Assembly: GCA_949316235.1 (NCBI GenBank) | Contig: OX438754.1 | Location: 5,937,501-6,001,500 of the forward strand | Source of the DNA: Oegoconia quadripuncta | Lineage: Eukaryota; Arthropoda; Insecta; Lepidoptera; Autostichidae | Direction of reading: 5' to 3' | Length of the DNA stretch: 64,000 nt | In this document: positions 569 through 63,832 of the stretch, piece after piece | How positions within the stretch are numbered: the stretch's first letter is position 1 | Layout of the letters: each line of letters opens with the position of its first letter | Notes under the pieces: generated by a model | Seen by the model: the letters and a program-made list of their open reading frames with translations, nothing else | Told to the model about the DNA's origin: nothing | Database searches by the model: none | Made by a program: the position numbers and the translations under genes

Positions 569-841
569 TTAATCGGAATTGCTAGCAGACAATTTCAAAC
601 GTATCGCCTTACTTCTTGCGTCATACAAAGCATGGCTTACACTTGAAAAATTCGGAAAATTTATAACATGGTCCAATTTTCGCTCTTTAATTTCGCATAC
701 TTTCTCTGCATATAACTGACAGACAGATTTATCAGACGCCATGACAGTTTCCTTGAGCTCAGCAACTAATTTGTCAACAATATTCTGCGTGAGATTTGCT
801 TTACATTTATTGTGTTTACGTCTTTTCAGTACCTTGTCATT
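569..841 (-). CDS. mod(mdg4): 3' coding exon completing a split FLYWCH finger
   Basis: This exon continues the finger that starts in the exon at 1963-2126. A minus-strand acceptor (TTTCAG, ending at 842) is followed by 91 codons in phase 0 that end in TAA at 569-571. The first residues, NDKVLKRRKHNKCKANL, supply the histidine end of the finger; the second histidine of H-x-H is a lysine. The remaining roughly 70 residues are polar and probably helical, with a run KETVMASDKSVCQLYAEKV, and end in KLSASNSD. FLYWCH proteins often carry such a helical stretch after the finger. Joining it to 1963-2126 gives an unbroken frame with a GTGAGT donor. It is the only isoform seen here that needs two private exons. 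Whether it is really spliced this way is inferred. Confidence 0.6.
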   Translation of the reverse strand, partial: NDKVLKRRKHNKCKANLTQNIVDKLVAELKETVMASDKSVCQLYAEKVCEIKERKLDHVINFPNFSSVSHALYDARSKAIRLKLSASNSD

Positions 842-1962
842 CTGAAACGAAAGTTACAATTGTTATTATTGGTTATACCAGTCTCACATTAACAACTATA
901 TCAATATGGTAGGCAGATGGTTAAATTAGCCATTCAGTCGAATTCCTAGACGGATTGGTGGTATAAAAGGATAACACAACCAACCAATCCGCTCTGAGCA
1001 GCACAATTTCTGTAAAAGCAGAAATGTCGTATTAATATTGACGGAAATGTTAATAGTGACTTGCCACCGAATTATTTTATAAGAATTAAGAAAGAAAATG
1101 CTAATCTGTAATTGTTGATTCTATATTATTCAAAAATAAATTTAAAATAAAATACATAGATATGCGGTACAATACAATACAATACAATACAATGCTTTTT
1201 TCAAGGTAGGGTTGTACAGTCGGCGACATATGAAATGAAATGAAATGAAATGAAATATTTATTTGCTTGCATATTTATTCATGCAGGGCTGTTCTAACAA
1301 TGGTAACGTGATGCTTATTTAAGCTATAAGGTAAGTTCTCTATAATGACCATTTAATTTAGGTTTAGACTACCATTTTAAAGAACTGCGTATGCGTATAG
1401 CTTAAACAAAGAGCATGCTACCATTAATCATTTAAAATAGCCGTGTGTGACTTGAATCATGGGGCCGACTGGACTATTGGCCATCGCAAGTTTTTACGTA
1501 CGTAAAAATTTTTGCATTCGATGGCAAATAAATCGCCAGTTTTGCGTATCACATACGCGCCTTAGAAGTAAATTATAGTAGCGATAGTAGTACATCTATC
1601 CATTAGAAGTTTATGCCCTTATACTTACTTATATTAATGGCGATCGACGATTAATCCATCTACTAAGCATAAAAAATACACACACGCAGAACACACATGA
1701 AAATACACGCAATACACAAATGCACACACGCAATCACAAATTCACACAGGCAATACACAAATGCACTCACACAACATACAACAATTATTTCCATTGTCTC
1801 TATTTTCTTTATCAGTGCTGACGTTTCTTCTTTTTTTTTAATATGCTAGTTTAATTGCAGTAAACCGTGGGGTGGAGACCTGGTTACTTAAGTTCGGGCA
1901 CCAGTCTCCACATAGTAGTAGCCCCTGACTATATAAAAAAAATATGTTACAAAAGCACTCAC
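842..1962 (-). other. Private intron of the split-finger isoform
   Basis: The intron runs from a GTGAGT donor (1962 downward) to a TTTCAG acceptor at 842. It holds two microsatellites: an AATAC repeat near 1170-1194 and a GAAAT repeat near 1230-1257. It also holds a dispersed repeat (about 1214-1455) that recurs at 24316-24440, with a shared CAGTCGGCG start and a shared ACCATTTTAAAGAAC block. Around 1490-1510 is a short palindrome centred on TTTACGTACGTAAA. No further coding sequence was seen. Confidence 0.5.
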
Positions 1963-2126
1963 TCGAACTGTGATGTATCCGCAGCATTGAGTTTTCTTAT
2001 ACGTCGAGCATCGTAAAATATTCGTGCCGTTTTTGTATGTTCTTTTTTTATGGTACTGATAATGACCATGGAGGTACACTTTGCCACCTTTTCTCTTAAT
2101 GATCGACACCTGTTCAGATTCTCTCA
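1963..2126 (-). CDS. mod(mdg4): FLYWCH exon, first half of a split finger
   Basis: A minus-strand acceptor TTTGCAG precedes 2127/2126, and the exon opens with TG completing a codon, as in all other exons of the array. About 54 codons follow: a GGKVYLHGHYQYHKK core, then RCSTYKKTQCCGYITVR. The two cysteines sit at the FLYWCH positions (C-x7-C), but the usual tryptophan before the first cysteine is replaced (ILRC). The open frame runs on for a further 25 codons without any H-x-H. A strong donor (CGA|GTGAGT) at 1963 lies exactly where the finger breaks off, and the exon at 569-841 supplies the rest. An unspliced terminal exon would encode a finger without its histidines. Confidence 0.7.
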
Positions 2127-2440
2127 CTGCAAATAATACAATATGTATTCAATAAACAGAAAACTATGCAGCAATTCTAGTAACAACGATAATAAATCTA
2201 GTAACAAATAACTTACTCGTACTATACAAACTGTGTTAAAAAAAATTATCTAAGAAACAGCTGAACCGATTTTCTGGAAAACGAATCGATTCCGCCGTTT
2301 TGGCACTACAATACGACAAACAGGCAGACGACGTAGGTTTCAAACTTAGAATAATATTGATACAGAAAGTTGTTTTAAAAATCCTACCGTATAGATGCAA
2401 AGCGGATAAGAAAGCATGGATATGATCCGCTTGGCGATAT

Positions 2441-6767: not shown

Positions 6768-6967
6768 TCAGTGATTGTGGCTATGACAAAACTGTATAAT
6801 TTCATCATTCATAGTGATGACGGTGGCTCTACAGCCATAACAGGCCTTTACGCAGACCCAACGAGCTCGTGGTCCTCTGCAACCAGACCATTTGTTATAT
6901 CTGTACTTCCCCATTTGGATTGCTGGGTTCCCGAATCGCGACTTCGTAAATACTGGTTGCAGTAGTC
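6768..6967 (-). CDS. mod(mdg4): FLYWCH finger exon, RFGNP group
   Basis: The acceptor TTCACAG ends at 6968. The exon opens with GA and runs 65 codons to TGA. Residues 10-25 read RFGNPAIQMGKYRYNK, followed by RARWVCVKACYGCRAT. W36, C38 and C45 are conserved, with an additional cysteine at 42. The end is CHSHNH (H63, H65). The long plus-strand frame over the same bases (6597-6965) is its antisense shadow. Next to 5283-5476 it is one of the closest relatives in the array, in keeping with local duplication. Confidence 0.9.
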
Positions 6968-8170: not shown

Positions 8171-8174
8171 TTAA

Positions 8175-9609: not shown

Positions 9610-9803
9610 TTAGTGATTATGAGAGTTCTTCGACTTAACTATAACGTTCTCGATAGTGGTAACAATGGCTCGACAGCCTTTCTTGTTCTTGTCGCAGATC
9701 CATCGGAAGTTAGGGCCTTTACTGTAACTCCATCTATAGAATTTATACGGGCCCACCTTGAGCACAGGATTCCCGAAGCGTGTGGTCGTAAAACGAATTT
9801 GGC
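9610..9803 (-). CDS. mod(mdg4): FLYWCH finger exon, RFGNP group
   Basis: The acceptor CTTTTTCTAG is followed by GC and 63 codons to TAA at 9610. The finger reads RFTTTRFGNPVLKVGPYKFY, then NFRWICDKNKKGCRAIVTTI (C-x6-C) and NSHNH. It is nearly the same as the exon at 11610-11806, and the similarity extends into the intron just upstream (AGAAAAAGCACTCGAATA), so the pair arose by a fairly recent segmental duplication. Confidence 0.9.
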
Positions 9804-11609: not shown

Positions 11610-11806
11610 TCACCAGTGGGTATGAGAGTTCCTCCACTTAACTATGACGTTGTCGATGGTGATAATAGTGGCTCGACAGCCCTGCTGGTTCTTAATGCAT
11701 GTCCAACGGACTTGAGGACCTTTACTGCCGCTCCACCTATTGAATCTATACCGGCCCACCATGAGAACTGGATTTCCGTAGCGTGTGGTCGTAAAACGAA
11801 TTTCGT
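11610..11806 (-). CDS. mod(mdg4): FLYWCH finger exon, RFGNP group, H-T-H ending
   Basis: The acceptor CTTTTTCTAG is followed by AC and 64 codons to TGA at 11610. It reads RFTTTRYGNPVLMVGRYRFN, VRWTCIKNQQGCRATIITID (C-x6-C) and ends NSHTHW. It is the duplicate partner of 9610-9803. Here the last pair is H-T-H and one tryptophan has been added before the stop. A longer minus-strand frame extends upstream to 12014, but the shared acceptor makes 11806 the likely boundary. Confidence 0.9.
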
Positions 11807-11908
11807 CTAGAAAAAGCACTCGAATAGTTAAGAAAATATTCTCTGACATGTGAAATAGAACAAATGAATACATAAAATAGATATGAAATAAATAGGTTGG
11901 TGACTCTA

Positions 11909-12561: not shown

Positions 12562-12782
12562 CTAATGATTATGACTTCCCACTTTATATACGTCACCGAA
12601 GAATGTGATAAGCCTGGCTTGGCAGCCGCGCGTCGGTTTCTTTATACACACCCAGGAACCTTTACTCCCCTTCATATCCTTCCGTTTGTTGAATCGATAC
12701 TGGCCGATTTGGATAGCTGGGTTGCCGAATCGAGTTTTACCAAAGGTCACTTGGGATTTAGGAAGAGGCTGCAAGCCAGCAA
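12562..12782 (-). CDS. mod(mdg4): FLYWCH finger exon with longer N-side
   Basis: The acceptor ACTTTCAG is followed by TT and 72 codons to TAG. The exon has about 15 residues before the finger (AGLQPLPKSQVTFGK), then TRFGNPAIQIGQYRFNK, a GSWVCIKKPTRGCQAR core (C-x7-C) and GSHNH. The usual arginine before the tryptophan is a serine. A second AG inside the exon (TTGCAG) would not keep the common frame offset, so 12782 is preferred. Confidence 0.88.
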
Positions 12783-15069: not shown

Positions 15070-15260
15070 TCAATGGTTATGCACAGGCATTGTCTTCATT
15101 ATGGTGTTATCGAGCATAATGATAGTCGCCTTACAGCCGTGTTTGGCTTGGTTGCAGCTCCACCTGGTCTTCGGTTCCCTGCTGCAGCTATGTTTGTTGA
15201 AACGGTAACCATCAAGGCACAAAATCTGTGCCCCTTTACGCGTCATCTCAAAATAAGGCC
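15070..15260 (-). CDS. mod(mdg4): FLYWCH exon, tandem subarray copy 1
   Basis: The acceptor TTTATTTGAAG is followed by GG and 62 codons to TGA. The exon is exactly 191 bases. It reads PYFEMTRKGAQILCLDGYRF, NKHSCSREPKTRWSCNQAKH with GCKATIIM, and ends VHNH. It lies in the tandem group 15070-24842, whose members share YFE, RKG, the KHS block and the TRW-x-C core. The plus-strand frame across it is an antisense shadow. Confidence 0.9.
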
Positions 15261-16649
15261 CTTCAAATAAACGATTTAAAAATCAATATCGTAAATTTAA
15301 AACTATTTTTTTTTAACTACAAAACTTCACTTGATTTATGTGCTATGAGTAGAAATAGACTACTCACGTAGTTATTAGATATATATTACAAAATTTCTGA
15401 CTACTTAGAGGATAAGCAAGCATGGACATAGGTCGCTCGACAATATTCGGTCTAATTATACAATTAATGTATATTTTTCCTTGTTTTGTCGAATTACGAA
15501 TTGTAACCCAAAACCTACTTAAAAAGAGCAACCGTTGAGTTTTTGCCCGTTTTTCTTTGGGAAATCAGCGGTGTGAATGACCAGTAATTTTAATATGATG
15601 TAACGTTTTCAAGTGATATTTTTATCCTATATATGAAGTAAATGACTACTATTGATAAGAGGGCAACGAACCTACCGACCTAAGTCTGGAAGCATTGATT
15701 TAACACTTCAATTGTTTAAACTTAATCTGTTTAAACAACTGCACATATTACTTTTCTTTAAAGAAAGTTGCTGTTACAGATAGTAAGTTTTTTTCAATAA
15801 TACACCTAAAACAAACGCGTTCGGGTACGAACTCGGGTCACATCACAGGCCAAACCACAGCGCGCTGCCGGCATACCACTGAGTATTTCAAGATTTTAGG
15901 ATCACAAACGATTTCTTCCTTAAAATTCCATACAATAAGTGCCTAGTTTGGTAGTTCAGAAAGTCACTATTTCAGAAAAAAAATAATGTAGAAAAATATT
16001 TTAATAATAAATTTTACATTGAATATCACAAAATGCAAATGCGAGATAACCGATACTAAATCTAATAAAATGTATTTGGTCATACAATATTGAATTCTAT
16101 TAACCTTAAACTATTACCATGAACCATGAGATGTAACCTACTTTAACGATCTACCTAATCCTTGACGATATTCGAAATGTTAAAACCGTAGAAAACCCTC
16201 AAACAACAGTGATTACATCATTCAGATTTACAACAAAACTATGTTAAAAGTTAAATATCTTAAAACGGTTCAACCGATCTACATTAAACAAACTGAATCT
16301 CGCACCTATCAGCTTTCGAAAATAAGAAAGTTTTTCCAAATCGGTGCAGCCGTTTTGTCGCTACAATGTCACATACACTAGGTGTGTGCATACACAGCCG
16401 GACCCATAGACTTCGCGTAGGAAGACCAAAAATAAAATATAAGAGAGAAATGAAAAATCCGCTTATAATTTTTGGTTACTTAGCACCCCAATGATTCTTA
16501 TAAATCTCTCACTTTCAAAACGGTAGTATTGGTCCTTTTGTGTGCAATAAATGTACCTAGATTTCATAGTCGTACGATGGAATGGTATAGAAAGTTTCGA
16601 TTCTGGATAGTATAGTTTGCTTGGGTTTGGATTAGGAAACATGAAGGAA
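15261..16649. other. Gap in the tandem subarray
   Basis: AT-rich, with no coding sequence recognised. The spacer differs in length from the neighbouring spacers, so the repeat unit has been reshaped by insertions and deletions since duplication. Confidence 0.35.
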
Positions 16650-16840
16650 TTAATGATTATGGCTATGCATAGTCTTAATTATAATGTATTCAAACATAAC
16701 GATAGTCGCTTTGCAGCCGTGCTTGGTCTGATTGCAGTTCCACCTGGTCCTCGGTCCCTTACTGCAGCTATGTTTGTTGAATCGGTAACCACCATGGCAC
16801 AAAACCTGAGTCCCATTACGTGTCACCTCAAAATAATAAC
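16650..16840 (-). CDS. mod(mdg4): FLYWCH exon, tandem subarray copy 2
   Basis: The acceptor TTTGGTTTAAG is followed by GT and 62 codons to TAA. It reads YYFEVTRNGTQVLCHGGYRF, NKHSCSKGPRTRWNCNQTKH with GCKATIVM, and ends HSHNH. Its length equals that of copy 1. An asparagine replaces the lysine of the RKG motif. Confidence 0.9.
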
Positions 16841-18192
16841 CTTAAACCAAATGTGTCAAAATTATTATAATCAATCAACGCATGACAAATAACGTAAATT
16901 AATTTCAATTTAGAATTGTAGGATCGCAATGAAAAAAACTTATTTTGTTCTCAATTGAAGTGTCGGCTTCTGCGGCGTCTTAACACTTACTGAGATAAAT
17001 CTGACATAAATACAGCAATCCGCACTAGGCCCGCATTATGGATTATCTCTCATACCCTTTCCCAGAGAATAGGCTGTGTTCCATTAATGGAGACATGTAA
17101 GGTTAGGTTGATGACGAATGAAAAAACTTAACTTGGACACCAGTCTTAGTGCCGGGCATTTTTTACGTCCCGCAGAACTGAACGACGTCATCAGGCCGGT
17201 CTTTACTACAGCAGGTTTTCTGGACTGGAGAGGGATATCGGCATGATGCTTGTACCCTGACGCGTGGTGCTTGGTATAGGACGCTACGTGCGTCATCTCC
17301 CAGATACAAAGACAAAAGCTGGATCCGCTGCTGTGCCGACGAAAACGTCAAGCGGTGAAAAAATTCCAGTTTAAGCCGTATTTAATTTCGTCGTTTGACA
17401 TTGAAGTTCTCGGGCTGTGGGGGCCAGCTGCTAACTTCGCGATTTTTAAGCGCCTAGTCGATTCAGCGATGATCGGTGATGAGGTCGACCTGTTTGCTGT
17501 AGTGGTTAGAAATCGCGCAGGTTCGACTTAGTATGTGGTCTTTGACTTACCCTAATTGATGATGTATGCCTAAAAAAACTAATATAAAATATAAGACACG
17601 AAAAAAAATCAAATCTATTTAATCAAATCTACAATTTATCAATATATTATTTGGTTTATAATATTTTGGTAGATTTTTTACATCCGTTATTTCTTAATGG
17701 ACCAAAATAATAGTGCAAATCTTTATACTGTGATCTTCGTAGAACAACAACATTTGGAATTGCCTTTACCATTTAGTAAGAGCTTTCCCATATCAATGTA
17801 AATAACTTGTTCCACCGTCAGTAGATTAGTTGTTTAAACCTTCACCAAATAGAGGGCGGCGCGCTGCACGGGCGCGCGGCCTATTCTGTAGGACGATAGA
17901 TAGGTATTATGACGTACATCGAAATGCGCCCACGCCGCCGTGCCCCTCACACCGCGCTGTGTTTGGAGAAGGCCTGGATGGTCTGGCATGTTTGGAAGAT
18001 CACCAAGGGTAGAAATCTTGTAGATGCAGATAAAATACATTTTCGAGCCTTAATAATTATTTTGGCACATAGATTTGTACTTTTATAGTACGATTGGTTC
18101 CCATACAGTAATTAATATCCAAGTGAGATGTGCGTTGGATAATTTGTGACAAACGACTCAGAATTAATCACTTAAACCGAATGTTAAATAAA
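16841..18192. other. Gap with LINE-like debris
   Basis: Plus-strand bases 17370-17510 read KPYLISSFDIEVLGLWGPAA, reminiscent of a retroelement-encoded segment, and run into a fragment of the SINE family 1 head (GACCTGTTTGCTGTAGTGGT). Frames at 17084-17351 (-) and 17830-18040 (both strands) are not recognised. A GC-rich patch lies at 17850-17960. Confidence 0.35.
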
Positions 18193-18383
18193 TTAATGGT
18201 TATGTGTATGCATTGTCTTAATTATGGTGTTATCGAACATAATTATCGTTGCCTTACAGCCGTTTTCGGCGTGGTTGCAGTTCCATCTGGTCTTCGGTTC
18301 CTTGCTGGAGCTATGTTTGTAGAAACGGTGACCATCAACGCACAAAATTTGTGTCCCTTTACGACTCTCTTCAAAATAAGTAC
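18193..18383 (-). CDS. mod(mdg4): FLYWCH exon, tandem subarray copy 3
   Basis: The acceptor TTTATTTAAAG is followed by GT and 62 codons to TAA; the length is 191 bases. It reads TYFEESRKGTQILCVDGHRF, YKHSSSKEPKTRWNCNHAEN with GCKATIIM, and ends HTHNH. A histidine replaces the tyrosine of GYRF. Confidence 0.9.
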
Positions 18384-20142
18384 CTTTAAATAAACGATTT
18401 TAAATCATTACCATATAACCTTTGTACCATATAGCCTTTGTACACTTCATCATCTATGTTAAATGTTCTTTGTATTTTATTTTTGTGTGCAATAAAGAAT
18501 TTAATAATAATAATAATAACCTTCAAACTATATTGGTCACAATTTTTTGAGTTACAAAATCAACAATGTCGCACGTAATTAGTTAAATCGGGGTGGAAAT
18601 GTCTTTACCACATCGCTTTTAGAGCTTATTTTCTTAAATCCATAACTTTAAAAGAGATTATTGTACATTTGAACCAACATCGTCAAGTACCTTGCAAGGA
18701 CCTGTCCATTGTCAACCAATTTTTCTGTCAACATCAACACAGGGCTGAAAGCTTGGCAACACATTCTCTGTTCCTCTGGTGTTGCAGACGTTCACGTTAC
18801 CGTACTACTTCACTAGCAATTCCTGAATAAAGAAGGTCCCCCTGCTAAATTCTCGAACTCATATTAACACTTGGGAGCAAAGGAATATCTGGTTGCGATC
18901 ACGTGATGTCGTGGACTGACCTCATACCAATACTCGGGAGCAAAGAAATTATATTTCTGGTAGCCGATCACATGATGTTGTAGTATGACCTCATACCGAC
19001 ACTCGGGAGCAAATATTATATTTCTGATAGCCGATCACATGATGTTGTAGTATGACCTCATAGCGACACTCGGGAGCAAATAAATTATATATCTGGTTGC
19101 GGATCACACGATGTCGTAGTATGACCTCACACCAACACTCGGGAGCAAAGAAATTCTATTTTGGTTGCTGATCACACGATGTCGTGTTATGAACTCATAC
19201 TAACATTCGGGAGCAAATAAATTATATTTGTGATTTTAAAAACTAAGTAGTTAATAACTCGAAAAGCTCATATATATTATAACGATTTTAATAAAGTGTT
19301 TTTGCAACACAATAAAACACAACACAACACACACATACACACACCACATCCAATACGGTAGGACACGATACAATGAATAAATACATATAGAAATAGGTAA
19401 TCCAATATTTCTAACGGCAGAATTATGATTAAGTAACTGCTGCAATTAATTTATTTTACACTCCTATTACATTAACAAACATTCAATATTGAATTATTTA
19501 TTTTAAGATATTTTATTACCATTTTAAATTTTTTACTCAATTTGTATTTACACATTGCCCGAAACTGTAATATATATTACAGTCCTCTTAAATCATAGCC
19601 AATAAATATTATTAAGTACCGGCCGCGGTACGACTAGTCAGTCCAAGACCCTAAAATCGTACAGTGTGCCACGGAAAGAGTTAATTAGAATTTTCATACT
19701 GCCACCGCAGTATCATTATTTCAAGAGTCTAAAATGGCTCAGTAAGCAACGGAAAGAATTACGCTCAGTTACTCAGAGATACGGGGCGATCCTCTACAGA
19801 ACCATTCGTGAAAATTGCTCTGAAGGTTCAGTATGAAGTGGTGATATCTTTCGCAGAAACGACAAAAGATGAAACAAGCGGGTTTCGGACTTGAATTGCC
19901 CGTGGACAGAACTTACGCATCTGATAAACTACGGGGGTATTCTCTAAATAGTGGAAAGGATACATAGCAACCGAAGTGTGTAAACGAAGAGGATGGAAAT
20001 GTCGGTTTTTCCAAGTCAGCGTTTGTTGGATCGAGGTGGGTGGCACGTCTTGGGAGAGAGGTTGTGTGAATTGAATTAGAAAATTGCCGTTGAATTCCTA
20101 TCCGTCAATAATGGCTTTCGATATGTACCGAATGTGAAAATA
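18384..20142. other. Gap with minisatellite and retroelement tail
   Basis: Bases 18455-18520 resemble a retroelement 3' end (GTGTGCAATAAAGAATTTAA plus an AAT run). The minisatellite at 18865-19230 is described separately. Around 19305-19345 is an AC-rich run. The minus frame 19828-20046 is not recognised. Confidence 0.4.
18865..19230. repeat. About 70-base minisatellite, five to six units
   Basis: Units begin ACTCGGGAGCAAA, carry an A/T-rich ATTATATTTCTGGT stretch, then GATCACATGATGT, and end TATGACCTCATACC. Units differ by a few changes and by 5-10 base indels. Each contains the near-palindrome ATCACRTGAT. Spacers are not unique and unit lengths vary, so it is not a CRISPR array. Confidence 0.8.
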
Positions 20143-20333
20143 CTAATGGTTATGTTCATGCATTGTCTTAATTATGGTATTATAGTACATAACGATAGTC
20201 GCCTTGCAACCTTGTCTGCTGACCTGATTGCAATTCCACCTGGTCTTCGGTTCCCTACTGGAGCTATGTTTCTTGAAGCGGTAACCTCCAACGCACAAAA
20301 TCGCTCCTTTACGTGTCTCTTCGAAATAAAAAC
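20143..20333 (-). CDS. mod(mdg4): FLYWCH exon, tandem subarray copy 4
   Basis: The acceptor TTTATTTTAAG is followed by GT and 62 codons to TAG; the length is 191 bases. It reads FYFEETRKGAILCVGGYRF, KKHSSSREPKTRWNCNQVSR with QGCKATIVM, and ends HEHNH. It lacks one residue before ILC but has one more between the cysteines (C-x7-C), so the total length is unchanged. Confidence 0.9.
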
Positions 20334-21515
20334 CTTAAAATAAATGTTTGTCATTATCATTGTGGAATGTATTATACAATAACTTATTTTAAATTTTGGA
20401 GTTAAAGGTGCATTGAAACCTGAGTTACATTTATCGATAATCGAAAACTAGTTCATCGCAAAAAATAAATTTTCAATCTGACAGACTTATAAGTAAGACA
20501 TTTATCAAAATTATAGTGAAAGGTTCGTATATTCTGAGTGAGAATTCTGTATGTGAGGGAGAGGAAGAGGGTAGCCAAAAATTTGCTACATGCATGAACC
20601 AAAGTAAGTAAGTAAAGTAAAGAAAAAATCACAGTCATTTAAAACTATTCTATTCATTGTTTGAGAACATTCTTAATTAATGCAGACTAATTCACAATTG
20701 AAAGGCTCCACTTTTCAACAAACTTCAGACAAAGATATCAAACGCATAACGGTTCAAAATGAATGATGAGAATTTGAAAATTTTAACCTTTCCAACCAGC
20801 ACAACACATCAACGGCCTATAATCTATCTATAACTGGAACCATTTCATGGGAGGATTGGCCCTAATCACCACGCTGGGCACGCGGATTAGCAATTGCAGA
20901 TTTCTTTGGAGCTCCGCACCAATGTCTTCAACCCGCCGTAAGACCGTCGCCTGTCGGTTCGTATTTTATGGGATGCACTTTGAAGAGTGTGCTGGAATTG
21001 CATCTGTGGATTCGACCAACCAACCCAACATTCGCCGAAGCAGTTGGTTCTTCATTCATAATGCGAACAGTCAAGGCATGGAATCGCCTTCCGACATAAT
21101 TTTTTCCTAAGTTCAATACCCAATCTTCAAGTGCAATAGACATGTCACTTACATAAAAAGTTTATTGTTAAGAGGGCTTATCCCACACGGCATTAAATAC
21201 AAACTTTCAAGCCCAAATGTTTCGAAATTAACAGACCGCTTCTAATGAAACTTTATATGTATAAGCAGGTTACATAGATCTAAAAAGTTACTAGAAAACA
21301 TTTTCAAAATGTCGAATTTAAAAGAATACTTTGATTTATTTTTCTGTTACTATTGAAAACTTAAATCGCGCTAATTTAGTACTTCTACTCTTTATCGAAA
21401 ATATTGTCTCCTAACTTTTCAGATTTATGCTTATAAAGTTTCATTAGAATCATTTTTAACGAACTCTTTAAGAATTGATCTCGTGATTTCACAATAAAAC
21501 TGAATTACAAATACA
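20334..21515. other. Gap with a degraded LINE fragment
   Basis: See the LINE fragment at 20850-21130. Bases 21225-21460 are a dispersed repeat also present, inverted, at 9245-9530. No other coding content was found. Confidence 0.4.
20850..21130 (+). pseudogene. Degraded LINE reverse-transcriptase C-terminus
   Basis: One plus frame reads SFIMRTVKAWNRLPT and then stops. This matches the SFIMRTADKVWNSLPASVFP motif of the minus-strand fragment at 21863-22147. Upstream parts are spread over other frames, so it is frameshifted and dead. Confidence 0.6.
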
Positions 21516-21706
21516 TTAATGATTATGCACATGCATTGTCCTAACTATGCTATTATCGTACATAACGATAGTCGCCTTGCAGCCGCGTTTGTTCTGGTTG
21601 CAGACCCACCTGGTCTTCGGATTCCTACTGGAGCTATGTTTGTTGAAGCGATAACCATCCATGCACAAAACCTGTGTCCCTTTGTTCAACTCCTCGAAAT
21701 AAGCAC
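21516..21706 (-). CDS. mod(mdg4): FLYWCH exon, tandem subarray copy 5
   Basis: The acceptor TTTCTTTGAAG is followed by GT and 62 codons to TAA; the length is 191 bases. It reads AYFEELNKGTQVLCMDGYRF, NKHSSSRNPKTRWVCNQNKR with GCKATIVM, and ends HVHNH. The arginine of RKG is an asparagine, the clearest change within the group. Confidence 0.9.
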
Positions 21707-21862
21707 CTTCAAAGAAACGTTTTTAAATTATATTATTCTTTCGAATTCATATAAGGGAAACTCGAAAATCATACAGCATGTAACCCACTCGCACTTATAC
21801 GTTTTCTTTAATAAATTGTTTTTTTTTTAAATTAAAAACTGGTTTCGCGTTTGACTTCAATC

Positions 21863-22147
21863 TCACCTGATGGAAAGTGACGATGTAGCCGAAGATGTAT
21901 CACGCGCACCCAGTAAATGCCTATTCACTCTAGACTTGAAGATCCCAAGGTTGTAAGTGTCGGGAAAAACCGACGCGGGCAGTGAGTTCCATACCTTATC
22001 CGCAGTCCGCATTATAAATGATGAAGCAAAGCGCTTAGTGCGGATGTTCGGTATGTTGACAACATATGGATGGAAACCCTCCCCGCGCCTGGTTGTCCGA
22101 AGATGGAAAAGGGACGGTGGATAAGATCGTGCAATTCCATCGCACAC
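21863..22147 (-). pseudogene. LINE reverse-transcriptase C-terminal fragment
   Basis: The frame reads GEGFHPYVVNIPNIRTKRFA, then SSFIMRTADKVWNSLPASVF and KSRVNRHLLG. This is a standard end of the reverse transcriptase of Jockey/CR1-type non-LTR elements. The YADD core is absent, so it is 5'-truncated. Related 3' pieces are seen near 55690-55800. Confidence 0.75.
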
Positions 22148-23664: not shown

Positions 23665-23870
23665 TCAATGCTTTTGGAAATGATTATGCGAATGCAGTGT
23701 CTTAATTATGACGTTGTCGTACATAATGACAGTTACTTTGCAACGGTTTTTGGTTTGATTGCAGTACCATCTGGTCTTTAGGTCTTTGCTGCTGGCTGTA
23801 TGTTTGTAGAAGCGGTAGCCACCCACACACAAGACCTGTGCTCCTTTACGCGACATCTCGAAATGATGAC
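23665..23870 (-). CDS. mod(mdg4): FLYWCH exon, tandem subarray copy 6, with tail
   Basis: The acceptor TTTATTTTAAG is followed by GT and 67 codons to TGA. It reads HHFEMSRKGAQVLCVGGYRF, YKHTASSKDLKTRWYCNQTK with NRCKVTVIM, and ends HSHNHFQKH. The stop is displaced, so five codons (FQKHx pattern) extend the exon to 206 bases. It is the only subarray member not exactly 191 bases long. Confidence 0.9.
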
Positions 23871-28326: not shown

Positions 28327-28526
28327 TTACTCATGGTTATGTTCTCGAACAATTTTCACGATAATGTCGTTCTCTGTACAGAAACATGCACGACACCCTT
28401 TCAGATTGCAAAGCCATCGCTTGACTTTCGCACGTTTGCTTTTTGAATTCGAACATTGTAGCCGAAATACATGCTTCCCCACTATAACAGTTGGTTTTCC
28501 ACCATGAGTTTTACCGAATACCGGTA
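28327..28526 (-). CDS. mod(mdg4): Isolated divergent FLYWCH finger exon
   Basis: The acceptor TCTTTCAG is followed by TA and 65 codons to TAA. It reads PVFGKTHGGKPTVIVGKHVF, then KVKRWLCNLKGCRACFCTEN and REHNHE. The cysteines are only C-x4-C apart, two residues fewer than usual, and two further cysteines follow. The N side contains an additional cysteine (RLQCSNSK). It stands 3.5 kb from the next exon on one side and 1.9 kb on the other and has no close paralogue in the window. There is no long ATG-started frame here; it was found through the minus-strand splice site. Confidence 0.85.
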
Positions 28527-30426: not shown

Positions 30427-30620
30427 TCAGTGGTTATGTTCATTGTGGGTCTGAATGATGACGTCATCGAGGGTTATTATGGCAGCGCGACACCCGGTGC
30501 TGTACTTGACACATGTCCACCGTACATTCGGACCTTTGCCTTTCACCTGGTTAAACCTGTAAGGACCCACTTTGATAGCAGGCTTGCCCCTTCTGGTCAC
30601 GCCGAACACCGCCGATACAC
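30427..30620 (-). CDS. mod(mdg4): FLYWCH finger exon
   Basis: The acceptor TACTTTCAG is followed by GT and 63 codons to TGA. It reads FGVTRRGKPAIKVGPYRFNQ, then GPNVRWTCVKYSTGCRAAII (C-x6-C) and NEHNH. It lies 171 bases downstream, in the sense of transcription, of the Psq exon, the shortest distance between two exons in the array. Confidence 0.9.
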
Positions 30621-30791: not shown

Positions 30792-31015
30792 TTAAAACAA
30801 TTTAATCTGTTGCGTTTTAGCAAGACTTAACAATTCAACTTTTTGCAATTTCCCCTTCTTGAGGTGCCTTCTAAGGGTTCTGGAAGGTATATTGAAGATT
30901 CTCGAAGCTTGGTTAACACCCATTTCTCTAGATTCCACCATTTTCATCGCTTCCATAAGATCATCAGTCGACCATGTCACCTTCAATAACTTCATAAGGT
31001 TTCGTTGGTTTCTAA
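30792..31015 (-). CDS. Alternative 3' exon with Psq-type helix-turn-helix
   Basis: A minus-strand acceptor TTGTTTTTAG ends at 31016. The exon opens with TT and 73 codons follow to TAA, the same frame offset as all FLYWCH exons. The residues LKVTWSTDDLMEAMKMVESR, EMGVNQASRIFNIPSRTLRR and HLKKG fit a Psq (pipsqueak / CENP-B-like) DNA-binding domain: W, then acidic helix 1, G-x-x-x-A in helix 2, and IPSRTLRR in the recognition helix. A tail of about 20 residues follows. If joined to the shared 5' exons it would give a BTB-Psq protein rather than a BTB-FLYWCH one. Alternatively it is a remnant of a pogo-type transposase N-terminus, which carries the same fold; the open frame, splice site and offset argue for use as an exon. 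No catalytic DDE part was seen nearby. Confidence 0.7.
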
Positions 31016-32395: not shown

Positions 32396-32682
32396 TTATG
32401 GCACAAATCCTTTCCTAATCGGGATAGGTGGCCCTGCAGTGTTGTCGTAAGACTGTTGATGGTTAATATAATCTAGATAGTTATATTGCGGCGAATGATT
32501 GTGCACTAGAAACGATTTCATTATGGAGCCATCCGGTCCTGTGTAGAGGTTGGCGGTGCATTTGGTTTTGTACCTCGTGGTACACTGCCACCTGGTGCTT
32601 GCTCCGCGGTCAAAGTTTTTCGTAAATCTATGTCCATTGACCAGCAACATCTTGTGTCCTCTCCGACTACATATCGTATAAA
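32396..32682 (-). CDS. mod(mdg4): FLYWCH finger exon with long C-terminal tail
   Basis: The acceptor CCATTTTCAG is followed by TT and 94 codons to TAA. It reads SRRGHKMLLVNGHRFTKNFD, then STRWQCTTRYKTKCTANLYT (C-x7-C) and LVHNH. After the finger about 30 residues follow, SPQYNYLDYINHQQSYDN and a proline-rich AGPPIPIRKGFVP, the longest tail in the array. It belongs to the RWQC group that fills 32396-42379. Confidence 0.9.
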
Positions 32683-36085: not shown

Positions 36086-36285
36086 CTACTTAACAATTGC
36101 ATGGTTATGTTCAAAAGAATATTTCACAACTTGCTCTTCGACAGTGGTAATGAAAGATCTGCACTTGGTACGATATCTGGAACAACACTGCCATCTCACC
36201 TTCAAACCTTGCTTTTTCTCCCTAGAGAAGCGAAACCCGCCTGCTATTAACATTTGTGTACCTCTTGATGTCCAAATGAAGCGAA
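36086..36285 (-). CDS. mod(mdg4): FLYWCH exon, IWTSRGTQ group, copy 2
   Basis: The acceptor TTTACATTGCAG is followed by TT and 65 codons to TAG. It reads RFIWTSRGTQMLIAGGFRFS, then KVRWQCCSRYRTKCRSFITT and FEHNHAIVK. A four-residue tail follows the finger, and an extra cysteine lies next to the first zinc ligand. Confidence 0.92.
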
Positions 36286-36566: not shown

Positions 36567-36754
36567 TTAATGGTTATGGTTAAAAAAACATTTCACAACA
36601 TGTCCGTCTACAGTGGTAATGAAAGACTTGCACTTGGTGCGATTTCTAGTAGAACACTGCCATCTTATCTTCATACCGTGCTTCTTCTCCCTAGAGAAGC
36701 GGAACCCGTCTGCGATTAACATCTGGGTACCTCTTGTTGTCCAAATGTAGTGGA
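36567..36754 (-). CDS. mod(mdg4): FLYWCH exon, IWTSRGTQ group, copy 3
   Basis: The acceptor TTTACATTGCAG is followed by TC and 61 codons to TAA. It reads HYIWTTRGTQMLIADGFRFS, then KIRWQCSTRNRTKCKSFITT and FNHNH. The intron upstream carries the same TTTACATTGCAG as copy 2, so the duplication included the splice site. It lies only 281 bases from copy 2. Confidence 0.92.
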
Positions 36755-37448: not shown

Positions 37449-37642
37449 TTAATGACCGTGGTTATGTTCCAGGAAACTTTTAACTACATCCCCGTGTACA
37501 GTGGTAATAAAAGCCCTGCACTTGGTGCGACTTCTAGTTGAACACTGCCATCGTATCTTCACACCTTCCTTTCCCTCTCTGGAAAAGCGGAAAGCACCAG
37601 CGGCTAACATATCGCTACCTCTTGACGTCCAAATATGTCGGA
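37449..37642 (-). CDS. mod(mdg4): FLYWCH exon, IWTSRG group, copy 4
   Basis: The acceptor TTTCGTTACAG is followed by TC and 63 codons to TAA. It reads RHIWTSRGSDMLAAGAFRFS, then KIRWQCSTRSRTKCRAFITT (C-x7-C) and LEHNHGH. Two residues follow H-N-H. Found from the minus-strand splice site; no long ATG-started frame exists. Confidence 0.9.
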
Positions 37643-38996: not shown

Positions 38997-39229
38997 TTAA
39001 AGCAGTTCTACAAGTCTTCCCTTCGTTTTCTTACATGTGTTGGTATGGTTGTGCTGTAGCTTTCCTGATAGAAATTTACCCTCTATGGTGTAGATACTAG
39101 CCGTACATTTAGTCGTTGTTCTGGTGCAGCACCGCCACCTTGTTTTCAATCCTATTTCCCGGTCTCTGGTGAACCGGTAACCATCTATGACTAGCATGAG
39201 GGTACCCCTGGTAGTCAACAGCTTATAAA
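38997..39229 (-). CDS. mod(mdg4): FLYWCH finger exon with basic tail
   Basis: The acceptor GCGTTTCAG is followed by TT and 76 codons to TAA. It reads LLTTRGTLMLVIDGYRFTRD, then KTRWRCCTRTTTKCTASIYT (C-x7-C) and LQHNH. A tail of about 14 residues, TNTCKKTKGRLVELL, is rich in lysine and arginine. Confidence 0.92.
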
Positions 39230-40458: not shown

Positions 40459-40661
40459 TTATTCGTCAAATTTATGATTATGGACAAGTTTAGTCATCAC
40501 AACTTGGTCCTGTATGGTGTAAATGCACGCGCCACATTTCGTTCGATGTCTGCTACAACACTGCCATCTCACTTTGCCCTCAGTCATTTTCTTGTTTTTG
40601 GTGAATCGGTATCCATCTGACATTAGCATAGATGTGCCTCTGGTCGTTTTTATTTTCACAA
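40459..40661 (-). CDS. mod(mdg4): FLYWCH finger exon, RWQC group
   Basis: The acceptor AAATTTACAG is followed by TT and 66 codons to TAA. It reads IKTTRGTSMLMSDGYRFTKN, then KVRWQCCSRHRTKCGACIYT (C-x7-C, with additional cysteines) and LVHNHKFDE. Four residues follow the finger. Confidence 0.92.
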
Positions 40662-41606: not shown

Positions 41607-41878
41607 TCACTGTATTATCACATCTGGTATCCACGAGTATTTGAATATCCTAAGCAGTTTTCCTTTTGACCTCGACACGGTGTCATTTGCGTGGTTGTGG
41701 TGGAAGTTGCAGTTCATGATGACGTCATCGATAGTTGTTATGGAAGCTTTGCACCTCGTACTGGTTTTGGTGGAGCACTGCCACCTCGTTCTGCCAATGC
41801 CGAAGTCTTTTGCCCTGGTGAACCGGTAACCATCAGCCAGCAACATCACAGTTCCTCGACTGGTACAAAACTCCGTTA
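41607..41878 (-). CDS. mod(mdg4): FLYWCH finger exon, RWQC group, long tail
   Basis: The acceptor TTTATTTGCAG is followed by TA and 89 codons to TGA. It reads EFCTSRGTVMLLADGYRFTR, then RTRWQCSTKTSTRCKASITT (C-x7-C) and FHHNH. A tail of about 30 residues, ANDTVSRSKGKLLRIFKYSW and IPDVIIQ, follows. The reading frame begins upstream of the first ATG, so an ATG-only gene call would cut off the start. Confidence 0.92.
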
Positions 41879-42122: not shown

Positions 42123-42379
42123 CTAAGTATTATTATATTTTAAAACAGTTGTTACTTCGTAAGGTTCCCGCTGAATAGGTGGTTTAAGGTGATAGTGATT
42201 GTGTTTGAGGTTAGACTTGACGATGACATCACCGAGGGTAATGATGGAGGCGTTGCACTTGGTCCTGGTCTTGGTGTTGCATTGCCACCTGATCTTCGAC
42301 CCCGTCTGTATGCACTTGGTGAACCGATAATTGTTCGCTAGCAACAACACCCGTCCTTTTGACGTGAAGATTTCTAGAA
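42123..42379 (-). CDS. mod(mdg4): FLYWCH finger exon, RWQC group, long tail
   Basis: The acceptor ATTTCTTCAG is followed by TT and 84 codons to TAG. It reads IFTSKGRVLLLANNYRFTKC, then KIRWQCNTKTRTKCNASIIT (C-x7-C) and LKHNH. The tail, YHLKPPIQREPYEVTTVLKY and NNT, has 23 residues. The GC-rich island 42505-42630 lies 126 bases upstream. Confidence 0.92.
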
Positions 42380-44016: not shown

Positions 44017-44237
44017 CTAAAACCTATTTGCACTAGTATGCGCCAAGGGGTCATGGAAGCCCCAGACTCGAACGATAGCATTGTCCATAGTGTGAAGTGA
44101 CGCTCTGCATCCCGCTTTAGCTTTGACGCATATCCATCTTGTTCTACCACCGTATTTGTTTACTCTATTAAACCGGTACTGACCGATCATAATCACTGGG
44201 TTACCGCGCTGAGACTGAGCGAATACAGGGTTTAGAT
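44017..44237 (-). CDS. mod(mdg4): FLYWCH finger exon with altered histidine end
   Basis: The acceptor AATTTTCAG is followed by AT and 72 codons to TAG. It reads NPVFAQSQRGNPVIMIGQYR, then RTRWICVKAKAGCRASLHTM (C-x6-C). Where H-N-H is expected it has FHDPLAHTSANRF: the first histidine is present, but the second is four residues further or lost. The exon is otherwise intact. It may still bind zinc in a modified way or may be decaying. Confidence 0.8.
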
Positions 44238-51967: not shown

Positions 51968-52206
51968 CTAGTGGTTGTGCCAGCCAATGAGCTTCATAAG
52001 CCGGTTATCCACAGTGACAGCCAGGCAACGGCAGCCAGCCGACTTCTTTGACGCACACTCCCACCAAGTCTTCGCTCGCCGAGTCAGCTTCTTTACGAAC
52101 CGATAATTGCCCCACGATATGAACGGATTGCCGAATCTGGTCATTTCAAATTTTAGTTGAGATGAATTCGCTGATGCAGGAACTGGAGTAGTTGATTCAG
52201 TTTTCA
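51968..52206 (-). CDS. mod(mdg4): FLYWCH finger exon, WWEC group, copy 1
   Basis: The acceptor TTTATTTGCAG is followed by TG and 78 codons to TAG. About 15 serine/threonine/proline-rich residues (KTESTTPVPASANSS) precede QLKFEMTRFGNPFISWGNYR. Then come RAKTWWECASKKSAGCRCLA (C-x7-C-x-C) and GWHNH. The WWEC core and the LMKLIGWHNH end are shared with 54723 and 58449. Confidence 0.92.
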
Positions 52207-54722: not shown

Positions 54723-54925
54723 TTAATGGTTGTGCCAACCAATAAGTTTCATGAGCCGGCTATCGACAGTGACGGCCATACAGCGACAGCCGGCAGTTTT
54801 CTTCGCCGCGCACTCCCACCAAGTTTTCGCGCGACGCGTTAGTTTCTTCACGAATTTGTATTTGCCCCACACAATGGCCGGGTTTCCGAACCTCGTTGTC
54901 ACAAACTTTAGCTGTTGCGAGATTC
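54723..54925 (-). CDS. mod(mdg4): FLYWCH finger exon, WWEC group, copy 2
   Basis: The acceptor TTAATTTTCAG is followed by GA and 66 codons to TAA. It reads QLKFVTTRFGNPAIVWGKYK, then RAKTWWECAAKKTAGCRCMA (C-x7-C-x-C) and GWHNH. It lacks the S/T/P-rich lead of 51968-52206. The plus frame 54730-54936 is its antisense shadow. Confidence 0.92.
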
Positions 54926-58448: not shown

Positions 58449-58651
58449 CTAATGATTGTGCCAACCAAGGAGCTTCATGAGCCGATTATCGACGGTAACT
58501 GCCATGCAGCGGCAACCTGCAGACTTCTTAGCGGTGCACTCCCACCAAGTCTTGGCGCGGCGAGTCAACTTCTTCACAAAACGATATTTGCCCCATGATA
58601 TGAACGGATTTCCGAATCGCGTCATCTCGAATTTTAACTGTTGCGAAGCCT
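58449..58651 (-). CDS. mod(mdg4): FLYWCH finger exon, WWEC group, copy 3
   Basis: The acceptor CTGTTTTCAG is followed by AG and 66 codons to TAG. It reads QLKFEMTRFGNPFISWGKYR, then RAKTWWECTAKKSAGCRCMA (C-x7-C-x-C) and GWHNH. The first two bases are AG, which shows that the last base of the shared upstream exon cannot be T (that would create TAG). Confidence 0.92.
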
Positions 58652-61340: not shown

Positions 61341-62060
61341 ACTTAATGCGACATTTATACATTTTATATGTACGAGTTACACACGAGTACAAACATAAAA
61401 ATAAGTTTTATTCATTACTAAGATGACATACAACTTTACCTATAACAGAATTTTACCTTATTTACAATTTATTTCCAAACCAAGTAAAACTATTAAATTA
61501 TACCTACTTACATTACTAAATAAATTAGATTGTTTGATGTTTTACATGTTTCGACAAAGAGAAAATTCAAGGCAATAGACAAGGAAAAAACGTAATTCGA
61601 AACTACGTCGGAAAATATGCCTCAGATGGCTCGTTTAGTTTTCAACCAACGGGGATGATGCTCATCAGTTCTATCCGTCTCTCGAAGTTCGTCTCCAAGC
61701 ATTGTTCTTAACCAAAACATTATAGATTCTTTTAAACTCAAATCATTGGATTACTCGGGGCTACAACGGGTTCTATTAGCGCCCCTATCAAATCTTAAGT
61801 CAGGCTGTATATTTTTAGTTTTTGGTAAATATTTCTCTCAAACTTGACCTATCTGCGTTTTCCCTTGTAGACGCCATGTAGATAGCAGCTCATTAACGCG
61901 AATTTAACGATTTTGTAAACGATATATATCCACATGAAACAAAAATAAAAAAATTACACTAAATAGTCCAATCACATGAATTTGTATTGTAAACCTGGTA
62001 ACGACAAAGTATTTAATTACCAAACGTTCCTGTCTATTTAGTCACTTTTTTAGTTTTTTT

Positions 62061-62308
62061 TTAGTCACAAAATTCTTTTTTTGGTTTCTTGTGCTGTTTA
62101 ATAACTGTGTCGTGCGTGTGGCTCTCACTCATGCGGATCAGAACGTTGTCGAGGGTGACTGCGAAGGCGCTGCAATGTTCTCCAGTTTTGATGCATAGCC
62201 ACCGCTCCAAGGCACCACTCCTTTTCATCAGTTTATACCTGTGTCCGCCCACTACCAGCACTTTGTTCCCGAACTTACTCTTACTGAAGTAATATTCGAT
62301 GTCTTCTT
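62061..62308 (-). CDS. mod(mdg4): Divergent FLYWCH finger exon with basic tail
   Basis: The acceptor, a run of T then CAG, is followed by AA and 81 codons to TAA. It reads EDIEYYFSKSKFGNKVLVVG, then LERWLCIKTGEHCSAFAVTL (C-x6-C), DNVLIRMSESHTHD and a tail VIKQHKKPKKEFCD. The histidine pair is H-T-H, as at 63636 and 11610. The core CSAF and DNVL link it to the next exon rather than to the other groups. Confidence 0.9.
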
Positions 62309-63635
62309 CTGAAAAAAAAATTATTATTATAGCTTCAACAGGTTGGAGTCAGAAAACTTTGTGTTTATTTTGCTGGTTAGAGTTTCCCTTTTCATTATTT
62401 GGGGTCAGTGCAATAATTATTCTCTTATTTTCATCTCTTTTAACCGTGATATCAGTGTTCCCTTCATTCTTATCCATATCATCTTTCACACAATCCGTTC
62501 TTCGTTTCTTTGGATGTTCAATTCGGTTTATCAGACATTCATACATAACACTTTTTTACTGACATGACACTCATAAGGTAACCTCAAATCAGTCAAAAAG
62601 TTTATAATAAAATACTCAAGAGTAAAAATTATCTTCTTTTTATGGGCTGAAAACATGGCTTTAGAATAAATAATAACACACGATAGATAGATATCCCAAA
62701 TGTCGATTCTAGAAATACAACATGAAGATAGTCCTATGCCAATCGTTTATTCTCAGTGATTTGTTCATTCAACTATTGGACCGGGGGTTCTATTACACAA
62801 ATTCATCGTTATCGTCATCGGTTACGTTCTGACATGTGATTGGTTGGCTCATCGCTCGCTCGGAAATTTGACGGTTTCTCATTGGTCAACGTAATCGATA
62901 ACGATACCGATGAAGTTACGTAATCTAAAGGCTGGTCAGAATCCGGGTCATTTCGATCATTCGTTCATTTGGTTCGATCATTCATGTGATGGTTGGGCTC
63001 ACTTCCCTGTGACTGTGGCTTCTAACGTGACCGTACAATCGTTAAGTATGATCATTTCGTTAAATTTTATTTGCGATACGTATTCGCACAACCAATCAAA
63101 AGTTCCATCAAATTGTAAGCCATGTTTGAGCTGGATCATTGAAGGCGAATTATGCAATCATCAATACTTCTACACAGGACGGGTCAAATGATCAATTCAT
63201 TCATAATTGGAGTAGGATTACACGAAGATCTACTAGAACTAAGTTGGAATGTATGTAGGTTTTTATTTTTACAGTGATGTTTTCCAAATATTGGCTATAT
63301 TATTATGGTCTTATTTGTATTGCGTAAGTATTTCGGATAAGAACAATTTATTATGAACGCCACAACACGATACAAAAACAAAAAAAGTAGTAAATTATAG
63401 CTAAAAAAGGAAGTACAAATTATAAATAAAATGCGCACAATGCTGTCACGTGTTGCGGCGTGCACAAATGGCTAGAACTTAATTTATGCTGTGACGGATC
63501 ACAGCGCTGGATTTCAGTGCTCCCGGTGTTTTTTACTTATCTACGTGGTTCATGACATAAGCTACATGGTACGAGTAGTTAGGTAATTTAAATCAGGGAG
63601 TTCATTGAAGTTGTACAATAAAATACCTATTATAT
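62309..63635. other. Gap without recognised genes
   Basis: Overlapping frames at 62299-62567 on both strands and 62910-63191 (+) show no family resemblance. Sequence around 62800-63060 contains repeated TTCGATCATTCG / CGATCATTCATG words and CGTTATCG words. No finger was found. Confidence 0.35.
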
Positions 63636-63832
63636 TTAATTCAAACGACCATGGGTGTGTGTTCCACTCTCCTTAACTAAAACATTATCCACGGTAATTA
63701 CGAAAGCACTACAAACGTTGCAGATCCACCGACTCTTCAAGCCGATCGATCGGTTGAACCTGTATCGATAACCATCCAAAACTAGCACTGGATTTCCATG
63801 TTTGCCCGTACAGAAATAAGGACTGGAACTAC
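63636..63832 (-). CDS. mod(mdg4): FLYWCH finger exon with compact C-x2-C
   Basis: The acceptor TTTATTGTAG is followed by GT and 64 codons to TAA. It reads PYFCTGKHGNPVLVLDGYRY, then LKSRWICNVCSAFVITVDNV and ESGTHTHGRLN. The two cysteines are only two residues apart because about four residues of the usual loop are missing. The rest of the finger is intact. It is the exon nearest to the presumed shared 5' exons. Confidence 0.85.

What the first reader, a model, noticed from the sequence alone, without database searches (positions are those of the whole stretch)
569..63832. 33 alternative 3' exons in one orientation, all entered in the same phase
Seen in the sequence: each finger exon and the Psq exon follows a minus-strand AG and opens with exactly two bases before the reading frame; none has its own start. 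Family knowledge: mod(mdg4) is a BTB locus whose isoforms differ by FLYWCH-coding 3' exons, joined in part by trans-splicing (shown in Drosophila, reported in Bombyx). Inference: this is the mod(mdg4) variable region, here with about as many or more variants in 63 kb, all on one strand, unlike the mixed strands in Drosophila.
Basis: partly seen in the sequence, partly recalled or inferred. Interest (0 to 1): 0.9.

Follow-up and report, generated by a model that had tools for sequence, protein, structure and literature searches.

The report
Giant array of alternative gene endings
This stretch of a moth or butterfly genome holds part of a very long row of interchangeable last exons of the chromatin gene mod(mdg4), each giving the same protein front end a different DNA-binding tail; the gene type is known, but the row looks several times longer than published counts.

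Summary
The window has 31 clear FLYWCH exons, one Psq exon and one doubtful two-piece exon, all minus strand. The best acceptor, chosen without regard to phase, leaves two bases before the frame in 27 of 32 window exons and 79 of 94 over 314 kb. The predicted BTB donor exists 132 kb right of the window on the same strand, ending in phase 1. Its 281 residues equal annotated Pectinophora isoforms; in 222 of 222 annotated isoforms the first tail residue has a GNN codon. The window is only a slice: one genome search found 146 FLYWCH matches, all on this contig, 143 minus and 3 plus; about 183 in all, up to 1.54 Mb from the donor. Published counts seen are 9-41 combinations per species. Distal places keep the phase (55 of 60 sampled), including three opposite-strand ones that cis-splicing could not reach. 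Expression and trans-splicing are not shown. A known kind, extreme in size.

The parts
63636..63832 (-). FLYWCH 3' exon (acceptor TAG at 63832)
   Evidence: own HMM E 5.1e-16; Pfam FLYWCH 36.3 bits; phase-2 acceptor best scoring; exon ends
62061..62308 (-). FLYWCH 3' exon
58449..58651 (-). FLYWCH 3' exon, subfamily of three (51.9-58.7 kb)
54723..54925 (-). FLYWCH 3' exon, same subfamily
51968..52206 (-). FLYWCH 3' exon, same subfamily (acceptor 52206, or 52170 at the distance seen in its paralogues; both phase 2)
   Evidence: Pfam 37.8 bits
48400..48587 (-). FLYWCH 3' exon
44017..44237 (-). FLYWCH 3' exon; paralogue of an exon at window coordinate 90,570 (core identity 0.94, dN/dS 0.09)
   Evidence: the two best AGs were phase 0, phase-2 CAG third
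42123..42373 (-). FLYWCH 3' exon (acceptor 42373 or 42379, both phase 2)
41607..41878 (-). FLYWCH 3' exon
40459..40661 (-). FLYWCH 3' exon (acceptor 40661 at the distance seen in neighbours; best-scoring AG 40784 is also phase 2)
38997..39229 (-). FLYWCH 3' exon
   Evidence: best AG was phase 1, phase-2 CAG second
37449..37642 (-). FLYWCH 3' exon, subfamily 35-38 kb
36567..36754 (-). FLYWCH 3' exon, subfamily 35-38 kb
36086..36285 (-). FLYWCH 3' exon, subfamily 35-38 kb
   Evidence: Pfam 53.3 bits
35176..35363 (-). FLYWCH 3' exon, subfamily 35-38 kb
32396..32682 (-). FLYWCH 3' exon
30792..31015 (-). Psq (helix-turn-helix) 3' exon; phase-2 acceptor TAG at 31015 chosen by me
   Evidence: Pfam HTH_psq E 2.9e-9; acceptor; annotated BTB+Psq isoforms in other Lepidoptera
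30427..30620 (-). FLYWCH 3' exon
28327..28526 (-). FLYWCH 3' exon
   Evidence: Pfam 25.4 bits
24652..24842 (-). FLYWCH 3' exon, subfamily 15-25 kb (TAG acceptor)
   Evidence: the two best AGs were phase 0, phase-2 TAG third
23665..23870 (-). FLYWCH 3' exon, subfamily 15-25 kb, AAG acceptor
21516..21706 (-). FLYWCH 3' exon, subfamily 15-25 kb, AAG acceptor
20143..20333 (-). FLYWCH 3' exon, subfamily 15-25 kb, AAG acceptor (20333 as in paralogues; best-scoring AG 20318 is also phase 2)
18193..18383 (-). FLYWCH 3' exon, subfamily 15-25 kb, AAG acceptor
16650..16840 (-). FLYWCH 3' exon, subfamily 15-25 kb, AAG acceptor
   Evidence: best AG was phase 0, phase-2 AAG second
15070..15260 (-). FLYWCH 3' exon, subfamily 15-25 kb, AAG acceptor
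   Evidence: Pfam 49.7 bits
13859..14052 (-). FLYWCH 3' exon
12562..12782 (-). FLYWCH 3' exon; acceptor uncertain (12782 CAG or 12749 AAG, both phase 2; best-scoring AG was phase 0)
11610..11842 (-). FLYWCH 3' exon
9610..9803 (-). FLYWCH 3' exon
6768..6967 (-). FLYWCH 3' exon
   Evidence: FLYWCH in the protein joined to the common exons 29.9 bits
5283..5476 (-). FLYWCH 3' exon
1963..2126 (-). doubtful split FLYWCH-like exon, first piece, phase-2 acceptor, GTGAGT donor
   Evidence: Pfam below cut-off, no FLYWCH hit when joined
569..841 (-). second piece of the same isoform, phase-0 join, stop ending at 569

Best explanation
The window carries about a sixth of the terminal exons of a lepidopteran mod(mdg4) gene. 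Three common exons 132 kb to the right (C13:6133638-6132626, minus strand) code a BTB domain and linker and end in phase 1 with a G. Each transcript joins that end to one terminal exon, which supplies two bases to finish the codon, a short tail with a FLYWCH zinc finger (or a Psq helix-turn-helix) and a stop, so the same BTB module gets one of many chromatin-targeting tails. Shown by sequence: donor, acceptors, shared phase, orientation, orthology, tandem duplication and purifying selection. Inferred: that each exon is used. Inferred, about 0.6: that joining is at least partly by trans-splicing as in Drosophila, because the array spans 1.1-1.5 Mb and three phase-matched FLYWCH matches lie on the other strand. 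Cis-splicing remains possible for the rest.
For: BTB exons on the same strand, the only BTB matches between 2.6 and 10.1 Mb of C13; phase-1 end of the common exons; two-base acceptors as the best AG in 67 of 78, 79 of 94 and 55 of 60 sampled from 88 further places; common 281 aa identical in the five Pectinophora isoforms checked; the first tail residue has a GNN codon in 222 of 222 annotated isoforms with this common part, out of 226 fetched proteins; BTB+FLYWCH and BTB+Psq isoforms numbered up to X50 in one species; all 146 FLYWCH matches of one genome search lie on this contig; nearest paralogue adjacent for 36 of 82 against 2.0 expected; dN/dS 0.03-0.52 in the 32 computable of 37 close pairs; Pfam BTB, FLYWCH, Psq.
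Against: No transcript was available, so no exon is shown to be used. Poly(A) signals are not more frequent downstream of the stops than at random places (AATAAA or ATTAAA within 400 nt: 55 of 82 against 54.1; AATAAA within 300 nt: 26 against 32.0), so they give no support to the alternative-last-exon reading. Twelve of 82 exons have an early Met. Fifteen of 94 best acceptors are out of phase, one of them (-76129) perhaps a frame-shifted exon, and one copy is degenerate (-73894). The doubtful exon 2126/841 fails Pfam when joined. A cluster of 49 minus-strand matches at 4.97-5.28 Mb is separated by a 375 kb gap and could serve another, unseen donor. Identity of window exons to the nearest fetched tail is low (median 44.6%).
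Confidence: 0.92

Rival explanations
1. One very long minus-strand primary transcript from the BTB exons is cis-spliced to one of the terminal exons, with no trans-splicing in this species.
For: All 95 FLYWCH frames in C13:5837501-6151500, and 143 of 146 in the genome search, share the donor's strand; the nearest exons are 18-73 kb from the donor.
Against: Three plus-strand FLYWCH matches, 3 of 3 with phase-2 acceptors, cannot be reached in cis, if they are used. In Drosophila all mod(mdg4) mRNAs are reported to be trans-spliced, with a terminator in the last common intron (PMC12692577, PMC11727487).
Confidence: 0.35
2. The array is a family of small independent FLYWCH genes that merely duplicated beside mod(mdg4).
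For: 12 of 82 exons have an early Met; some database proteins are FLYWCH-only (P0199, P0200, P0201, P0211).
Against: Shared phase complementing the donor; 222 of 226 fetched annotated proteins carry this BTB common part followed by a tail.
Confidence: 0.05
3. The distal cluster (C13:4.97-5.28 Mb and beyond) belongs to another gene with its own, unseen donor; the mod(mdg4) array ends near 5.74 Mb.
For: No FLYWCH match listed between 5,268,672 and 5,645,669.
Against: Same strand, same phase (32 of 35 sampled), no BTB match nearby.
Confidence: 0.25

Closest known systems
mod(mdg4) of Lepidoptera (Danaus plexippus, Plutella xylostella, Bombyx mori; PMC4667647)
   Same: BTB common exons joined to one of many 3' exons, most coding FLYWCH; tandem clusters; 550 kb locus in Danaus.
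   Different: 9-41 exon combinations and at most 37 with FLYWCH are published per species, with acceptors on both strands in Danaus (7 isoforms same, 33 opposite) and Bombyx; here about 183 FLYWCH matches, 180 on the donor's strand.
mod(mdg4) of Drosophila melanogaster
   Same: BTB donor, FLYWCH tails (26 of 31 in PMC4667647, 27 of 31 in PMC9723646; passages seen).
   Different: 31 variants, mixed strands, all reported to be trans-spliced from separate promoters (PMC12692577). Here orientation is nearly uniform and trans-splicing is untested.
mod(mdg4) of Anopheles gambiae / Aedes aegypti
   Same: Donor and acceptors on one strand in Anopheles; acceptors 0.95-1.28 Mb away, apparently in Aedes (PMC4667647).
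   Different: 34-35 combinations; not compared here by sequence.
lola and tramtrack (BTB loci with C2H2 tails; recalled)
   Same: BTB front, alternative 3' ends.
   Different: Tails here are FLYWCH or Psq; 'tramtrack, beta isoform' is the name most sources give these lepidopteran proteins.
Dscam exon arrays (recalled)
   Same: Large tandem arrays of interchangeable exons.
   Different: Dscam arrays are internal, mutually exclusive exons; here they are terminal, and no shared selector-like motif was found.

Membership tests
mod(mdg4) | N-terminal BTB domain in common 5' exons | tested here: met
   (Pfam BTB E 2.5e-25)
mod(mdg4) | Common exons orthologous to annotated lepidopteran mod(mdg4) | tested here: met
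   281 of 281 residues identical in the five Pectinophora isoforms checked; names include 'modifier of mdg4' and 'mod(mdg4)-heS00531'. The Drosophila sequence itself was not aligned.
mod(mdg4) | Many alternative 3' exons, mostly coding FLYWCH | tested here: met
mod(mdg4) | Donor and acceptors share one splice phase | tested here: met
   (exceptions: 15 of 94 and 5 of 60 best AGs)
mod(mdg4) | Exons spliced to the BTB exons in RNA | not testable with these tools
   no reads; only annotated relatives
mod(mdg4) | Joining by trans-splicing | not testable with these tools
   indirect: 3 plus-strand matches in phase
mod(mdg4) | Acceptor exons on both strands (flies, Danaus) | tested here: inconclusive
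   window: not met; genome: 3 of 146 on plus, use unknown
lola / tramtrack | C2H2 zinc-finger 3' exons | tested here: not met
   no C2H2 family in the 8 window frames and one joined protein sent to Pfam; FLYWCH or Psq instead. The other window exons were not sent.
FLYWCH transposon (Mutator-like) | Transposase next to the FLYWCH domain | tested here: inconclusive
   569-853 has no Pfam family above cut-off; the reverse-transcriptase frames inside the locus are retroelements

The most novel reading that the evidence does not exclude
One moth mod(mdg4) gene shares a single BTB donor among roughly 180 terminal exons spread over 1.1-1.5 Mb, including three on the opposite strand. That would be far more than the 9-41 combinations published for this gene, and trans-splicing would have to be routine. 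A single-copy GGTA cluster about 265-505 nt into the last common intron (16 GGTA in the first 600 nt against 4.0 in shuffles; densest of 12544 windows) would be its donor-side element, in the place where Drosophila intron sequences suffice for some trans-splicing. Donor-proximal exons are old and conserved, while the rest of the array turns over quickly, like a growing repertoire of DNA-binding tails.
Probability: 0.4. Interest if true: 0.78.

Novelty: new member of a known kind. Interest (0 to 1): 0.55.

Why it matters
The mod(mdg4) locus is one of the best-documented animal cases where exons of separate transcripts are joined (PMC4667647), and how the donor finds its acceptors is open. A locus with about 180 largely phase-matched acceptors, nearly all on one strand, with three on the other, separates the two mechanisms: reads from this species could show whether same-strand exons are joined in cis, and how choice scales with distance. 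The strong conservation of donor-proximal exons next to faster change in the others also makes it a test case for how a chromatin protein gains new DNA-binding tails.

Tried and rejected
Poly(A) signal enrichment as a mark of terminal exons: none. Shared k-mers within 300 nt upstream or downstream of exons, as Dscam-like selectors: the highest-scoring upstream 8-mer is in 10 of 82 (1.7 expected), the list is AT-rich, rejected. RNA folds of the last common intron: not significant (z -1.51 and -0.75). U1-like 10-mers there: 4 beyond the donor in 1 kb against 2.1 per kb background, so the GGTA cluster is not an array of full 5' splice sites. FLYWCH matches interrupted by stops: none outside the exons at E < 1e-3 in 284 kb; one degenerate copy further left. 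A third class of 165-170-residue Cys/His tails at -56069 and -40662: phase-2 acceptors, but no Pfam family (one of the two sent), no counterpart among 226 fetched proteins and a poor model (pLDDT 53.5), so left open. FLYWCH reading of the joined 2126/841 exon: no Pfam support.
Full report
Setting. The window is C13:5937501-6001500 of a 622.6 Mb, 45-contig genome. Coordinates below are window coordinates unless marked C13. The gene reads on the minus strand, so upstream is to the right. Protein relatives place it in the Lepidoptera: the 281 residues coded by the common exons are identical in the five Pectinophora gossypiella isoforms I checked. The species itself was not identified.

The observation. 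A profile built from ten obvious exons and iterated on all six frames gives 31 minus-strand FLYWCH frames at E <= 4.5e-13 and a weak one at 1891-2148 (E 0.15); the seven plus-strand hits below E 0.05 are antisense to minus-strand exons. Pfam agrees for the 5 strong window exons sent and for the Psq exon; 1888-2148 is below the cut-off. The weak exon has a donor after 1963 and joins in frame to 841-569, but the joined peptide gets no FLYWCH hit at E <= 0.1.

Phase. For each exon I scored every AG that leaves the frame open up to the domain with a hand-set acceptor model (weights recalled, not trained here) and took the best one without regard to phase. It leaves two bases before the frame in 67 of 78 exons over 264 kb (27 of 32 in the window, the weak one included), against 177 of 383 among all AGs scanned (p 3e-13). 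After further sequence was added: 79 of 94, one frame having no AG. In most exceptions a phase-2 AG lies at the 29-44-base distance seen in other exons; one (-76129) may be a frame-shifted exon.

The donor. BTB matches lie at C13:6133441-6133572 and 6133205-6133345, minus strand. Reading the DNA gives E1 (coding part C13:6133638-6133428, 211 bases), E2 (6133344-6132787, 558) and E3 (6132700-6132626, 75), followed by GTAAGT, GTAAGC and GTAGGT; the sum, 844, leaves one base, G. A two-base acceptor completes it. A check on other species: among 226 fetched relatives, 222 have this common part plus a tail, and the first tail residue is G, V, D, E or A in 222 of 222, the five residues with GNN codons; the sequences are related, so this is not 222 independent cases. 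The relatives are annotated mostly as 'protein tramtrack, beta isoform', some as 'modifier of mdg4' or 'mod(mdg4)-heS00531', with isoform numbers up to X50. Only 120 rows per search are listed, out of 3446, 3303 and 429, and most names look like automatic annotation.

Extent. FLYWCH frames continue on both sides of the window: 95 minus-strand frames at E < 1e-3 in 314 kb (C13:5837501-6151500), the one plus-strand hit being antisense to an exon; one of the 95 is degenerate. A genome search with one window exon gave 146 matches at E <= 0.01, all on C13, 143 minus and 3 plus (150 of 200 candidates scored, so a lower bound); another exon gave 66, also all on C13, 65 minus. Left of C13:5837501 the two lists hold 88 places, 85 minus and 3 plus, one of them a 33-residue fragment: 49 minus in 4.97-5.28 Mb, 33 in 5.74-5.84 Mb, one at 5.65, two at 4.60-4.67 Mb. 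Together about 183. I fetched short stretches at 60 of these 88, taken mainly from the top of the list: the best acceptor is phase 2 in 32 of 35 distal, 19 of 21 middle, 1 of 1 at 4.67 Mb and 3 of 3 plus-strand places. No BTB match lies between C13:2.6 and 6.13 Mb. The Pfam family search for FLYWCH in this genome did not complete.

Evolution. The nearest paralogue is the next exon in 36 of 82 cases (2.0 expected, maximum 10 in 2000 shuffles), which points to tandem duplication; dN/dS is 0.03-0.52 in the 32 computable of 37 close pairs, so the copies are constrained. Donor-proximal exons (120-177 kb) have close annotated counterparts (median best identity 80%, 10 of 17 at 70% or more); window exons do not (median 44.6%, 31 of 32 with a hit, none at 70%), nor do those left of it (52.0%, 22 of 22, none at 70%); proximal against these two groups p 3e-7. 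Caveat: the tails compared are a listed sample chosen by similarity to a few queries.

How it probably works. In Drosophila all mod(mdg4) mRNAs are reported to be trans-spliced, with a transcription terminator in the last common intron and with the proximal part of that intron sufficient for some trans-splicing (PMC12692577: abstract and sections 3, 8, 10; PMC11727487: first of four parts and passages). In Lepidoptera trans-splicing of this gene was reported for Bombyx, Danaus and Plutella (PMC4667647: passages and sections 8 and 9). Here orientation alone would allow cis-splicing for 180 of 183 places, but three phase-matched ones on the other strand could only be joined in trans, if they are used. 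In the last common intron, about 265-505 nt after the donor, lies a cluster of GGTA: 16 in the first 600 nt against a mean of 4.0 and a maximum of 9 in 1000 dinucleotide shuffles, the densest 400-nt window of 12544 on both strands of 314 kb, single copy in the genome search. Folding there is not significant and full U1-like sites are few. I offer it as a candidate donor-side element, nothing more.

Comparison and novelty. Published numbers of 3' combinations are 31, 9, 40, 41, 35 and 34 for D. melanogaster, B. mori, D. plexippus, P. xylostella, A. gambiae and A. aegypti, with FLYWCH in at most 37 (PMC4667647). I saw no paper describing a longer array in the listings of searches of an open-licence library, which misses most subscription papers (for example Krauss and Dorn 2004 and Shao et al. 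2012, recalled, not seen). Database annotation already numbers up to 50 isoforms per species, so large numbers may be common in moths. The kind is known; size and near-uniform orientation are what is new here.

Not shown: expression of any exon, promoters, termination, and whether the cluster at 4.97-5.28 Mb uses this donor.

Noticed in passing
window 15260-23870 and window coordinates -95523 to -91866 (L036): Six exons of the 15-25 kb subfamily and three distal exons use AAG acceptors instead of CAG/TAG, a weak kind of acceptor (recalled) kept through duplications; possibly a regulated class.
   Followed up: partly
L022:560-900 (window coordinates 194560-194900): Single-copy cluster of 15 GGTA in the last common intron, just after a 10-bp inverted repeat.
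   Followed up: partly
window coordinates -56580 to -56020 (L029) and -41158 to -40625 (L028): Two Cys/His-rich minus-strand frames with phase-2 acceptors, 40% identical, no Pfam family for the one sent: a possible third class of tail.
   Followed up: partly
proteins P0132, P0145, P0134, P0146 and relatives: In other Lepidoptera the same BTB common part is annotated with homeobox (PF00046), BED (PF02892), PF16064 or PF13842 tails, some of them domains also known from transposases (recalled), as if the locus captures DNA-binding domains (tails printed).
   Followed up: no
C13:5012379-5019885: Two pairs of FLYWCH matches with identical scores about 4.8 kb apart: a very recent duplication, or an assembly duplicate.
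   Followed up: no
window coordinates 108552-114139 (L013) and -63025 to -60707 (L030): Long open retroelement frames on the plus strand inside the locus, two with reverse transcriptase and one with a zinc knuckle.
   Followed up: partly
window coordinates 117325-117435: A weak match (40.5% over 37 residues) to a Psq tail outside the window.
   Followed up: no
window coordinates -73894 to -73724 (L034): A degenerate FLYWCH copy that has lost a zinc-binding Cys, the clearest dead exon seen.
   Followed up: no
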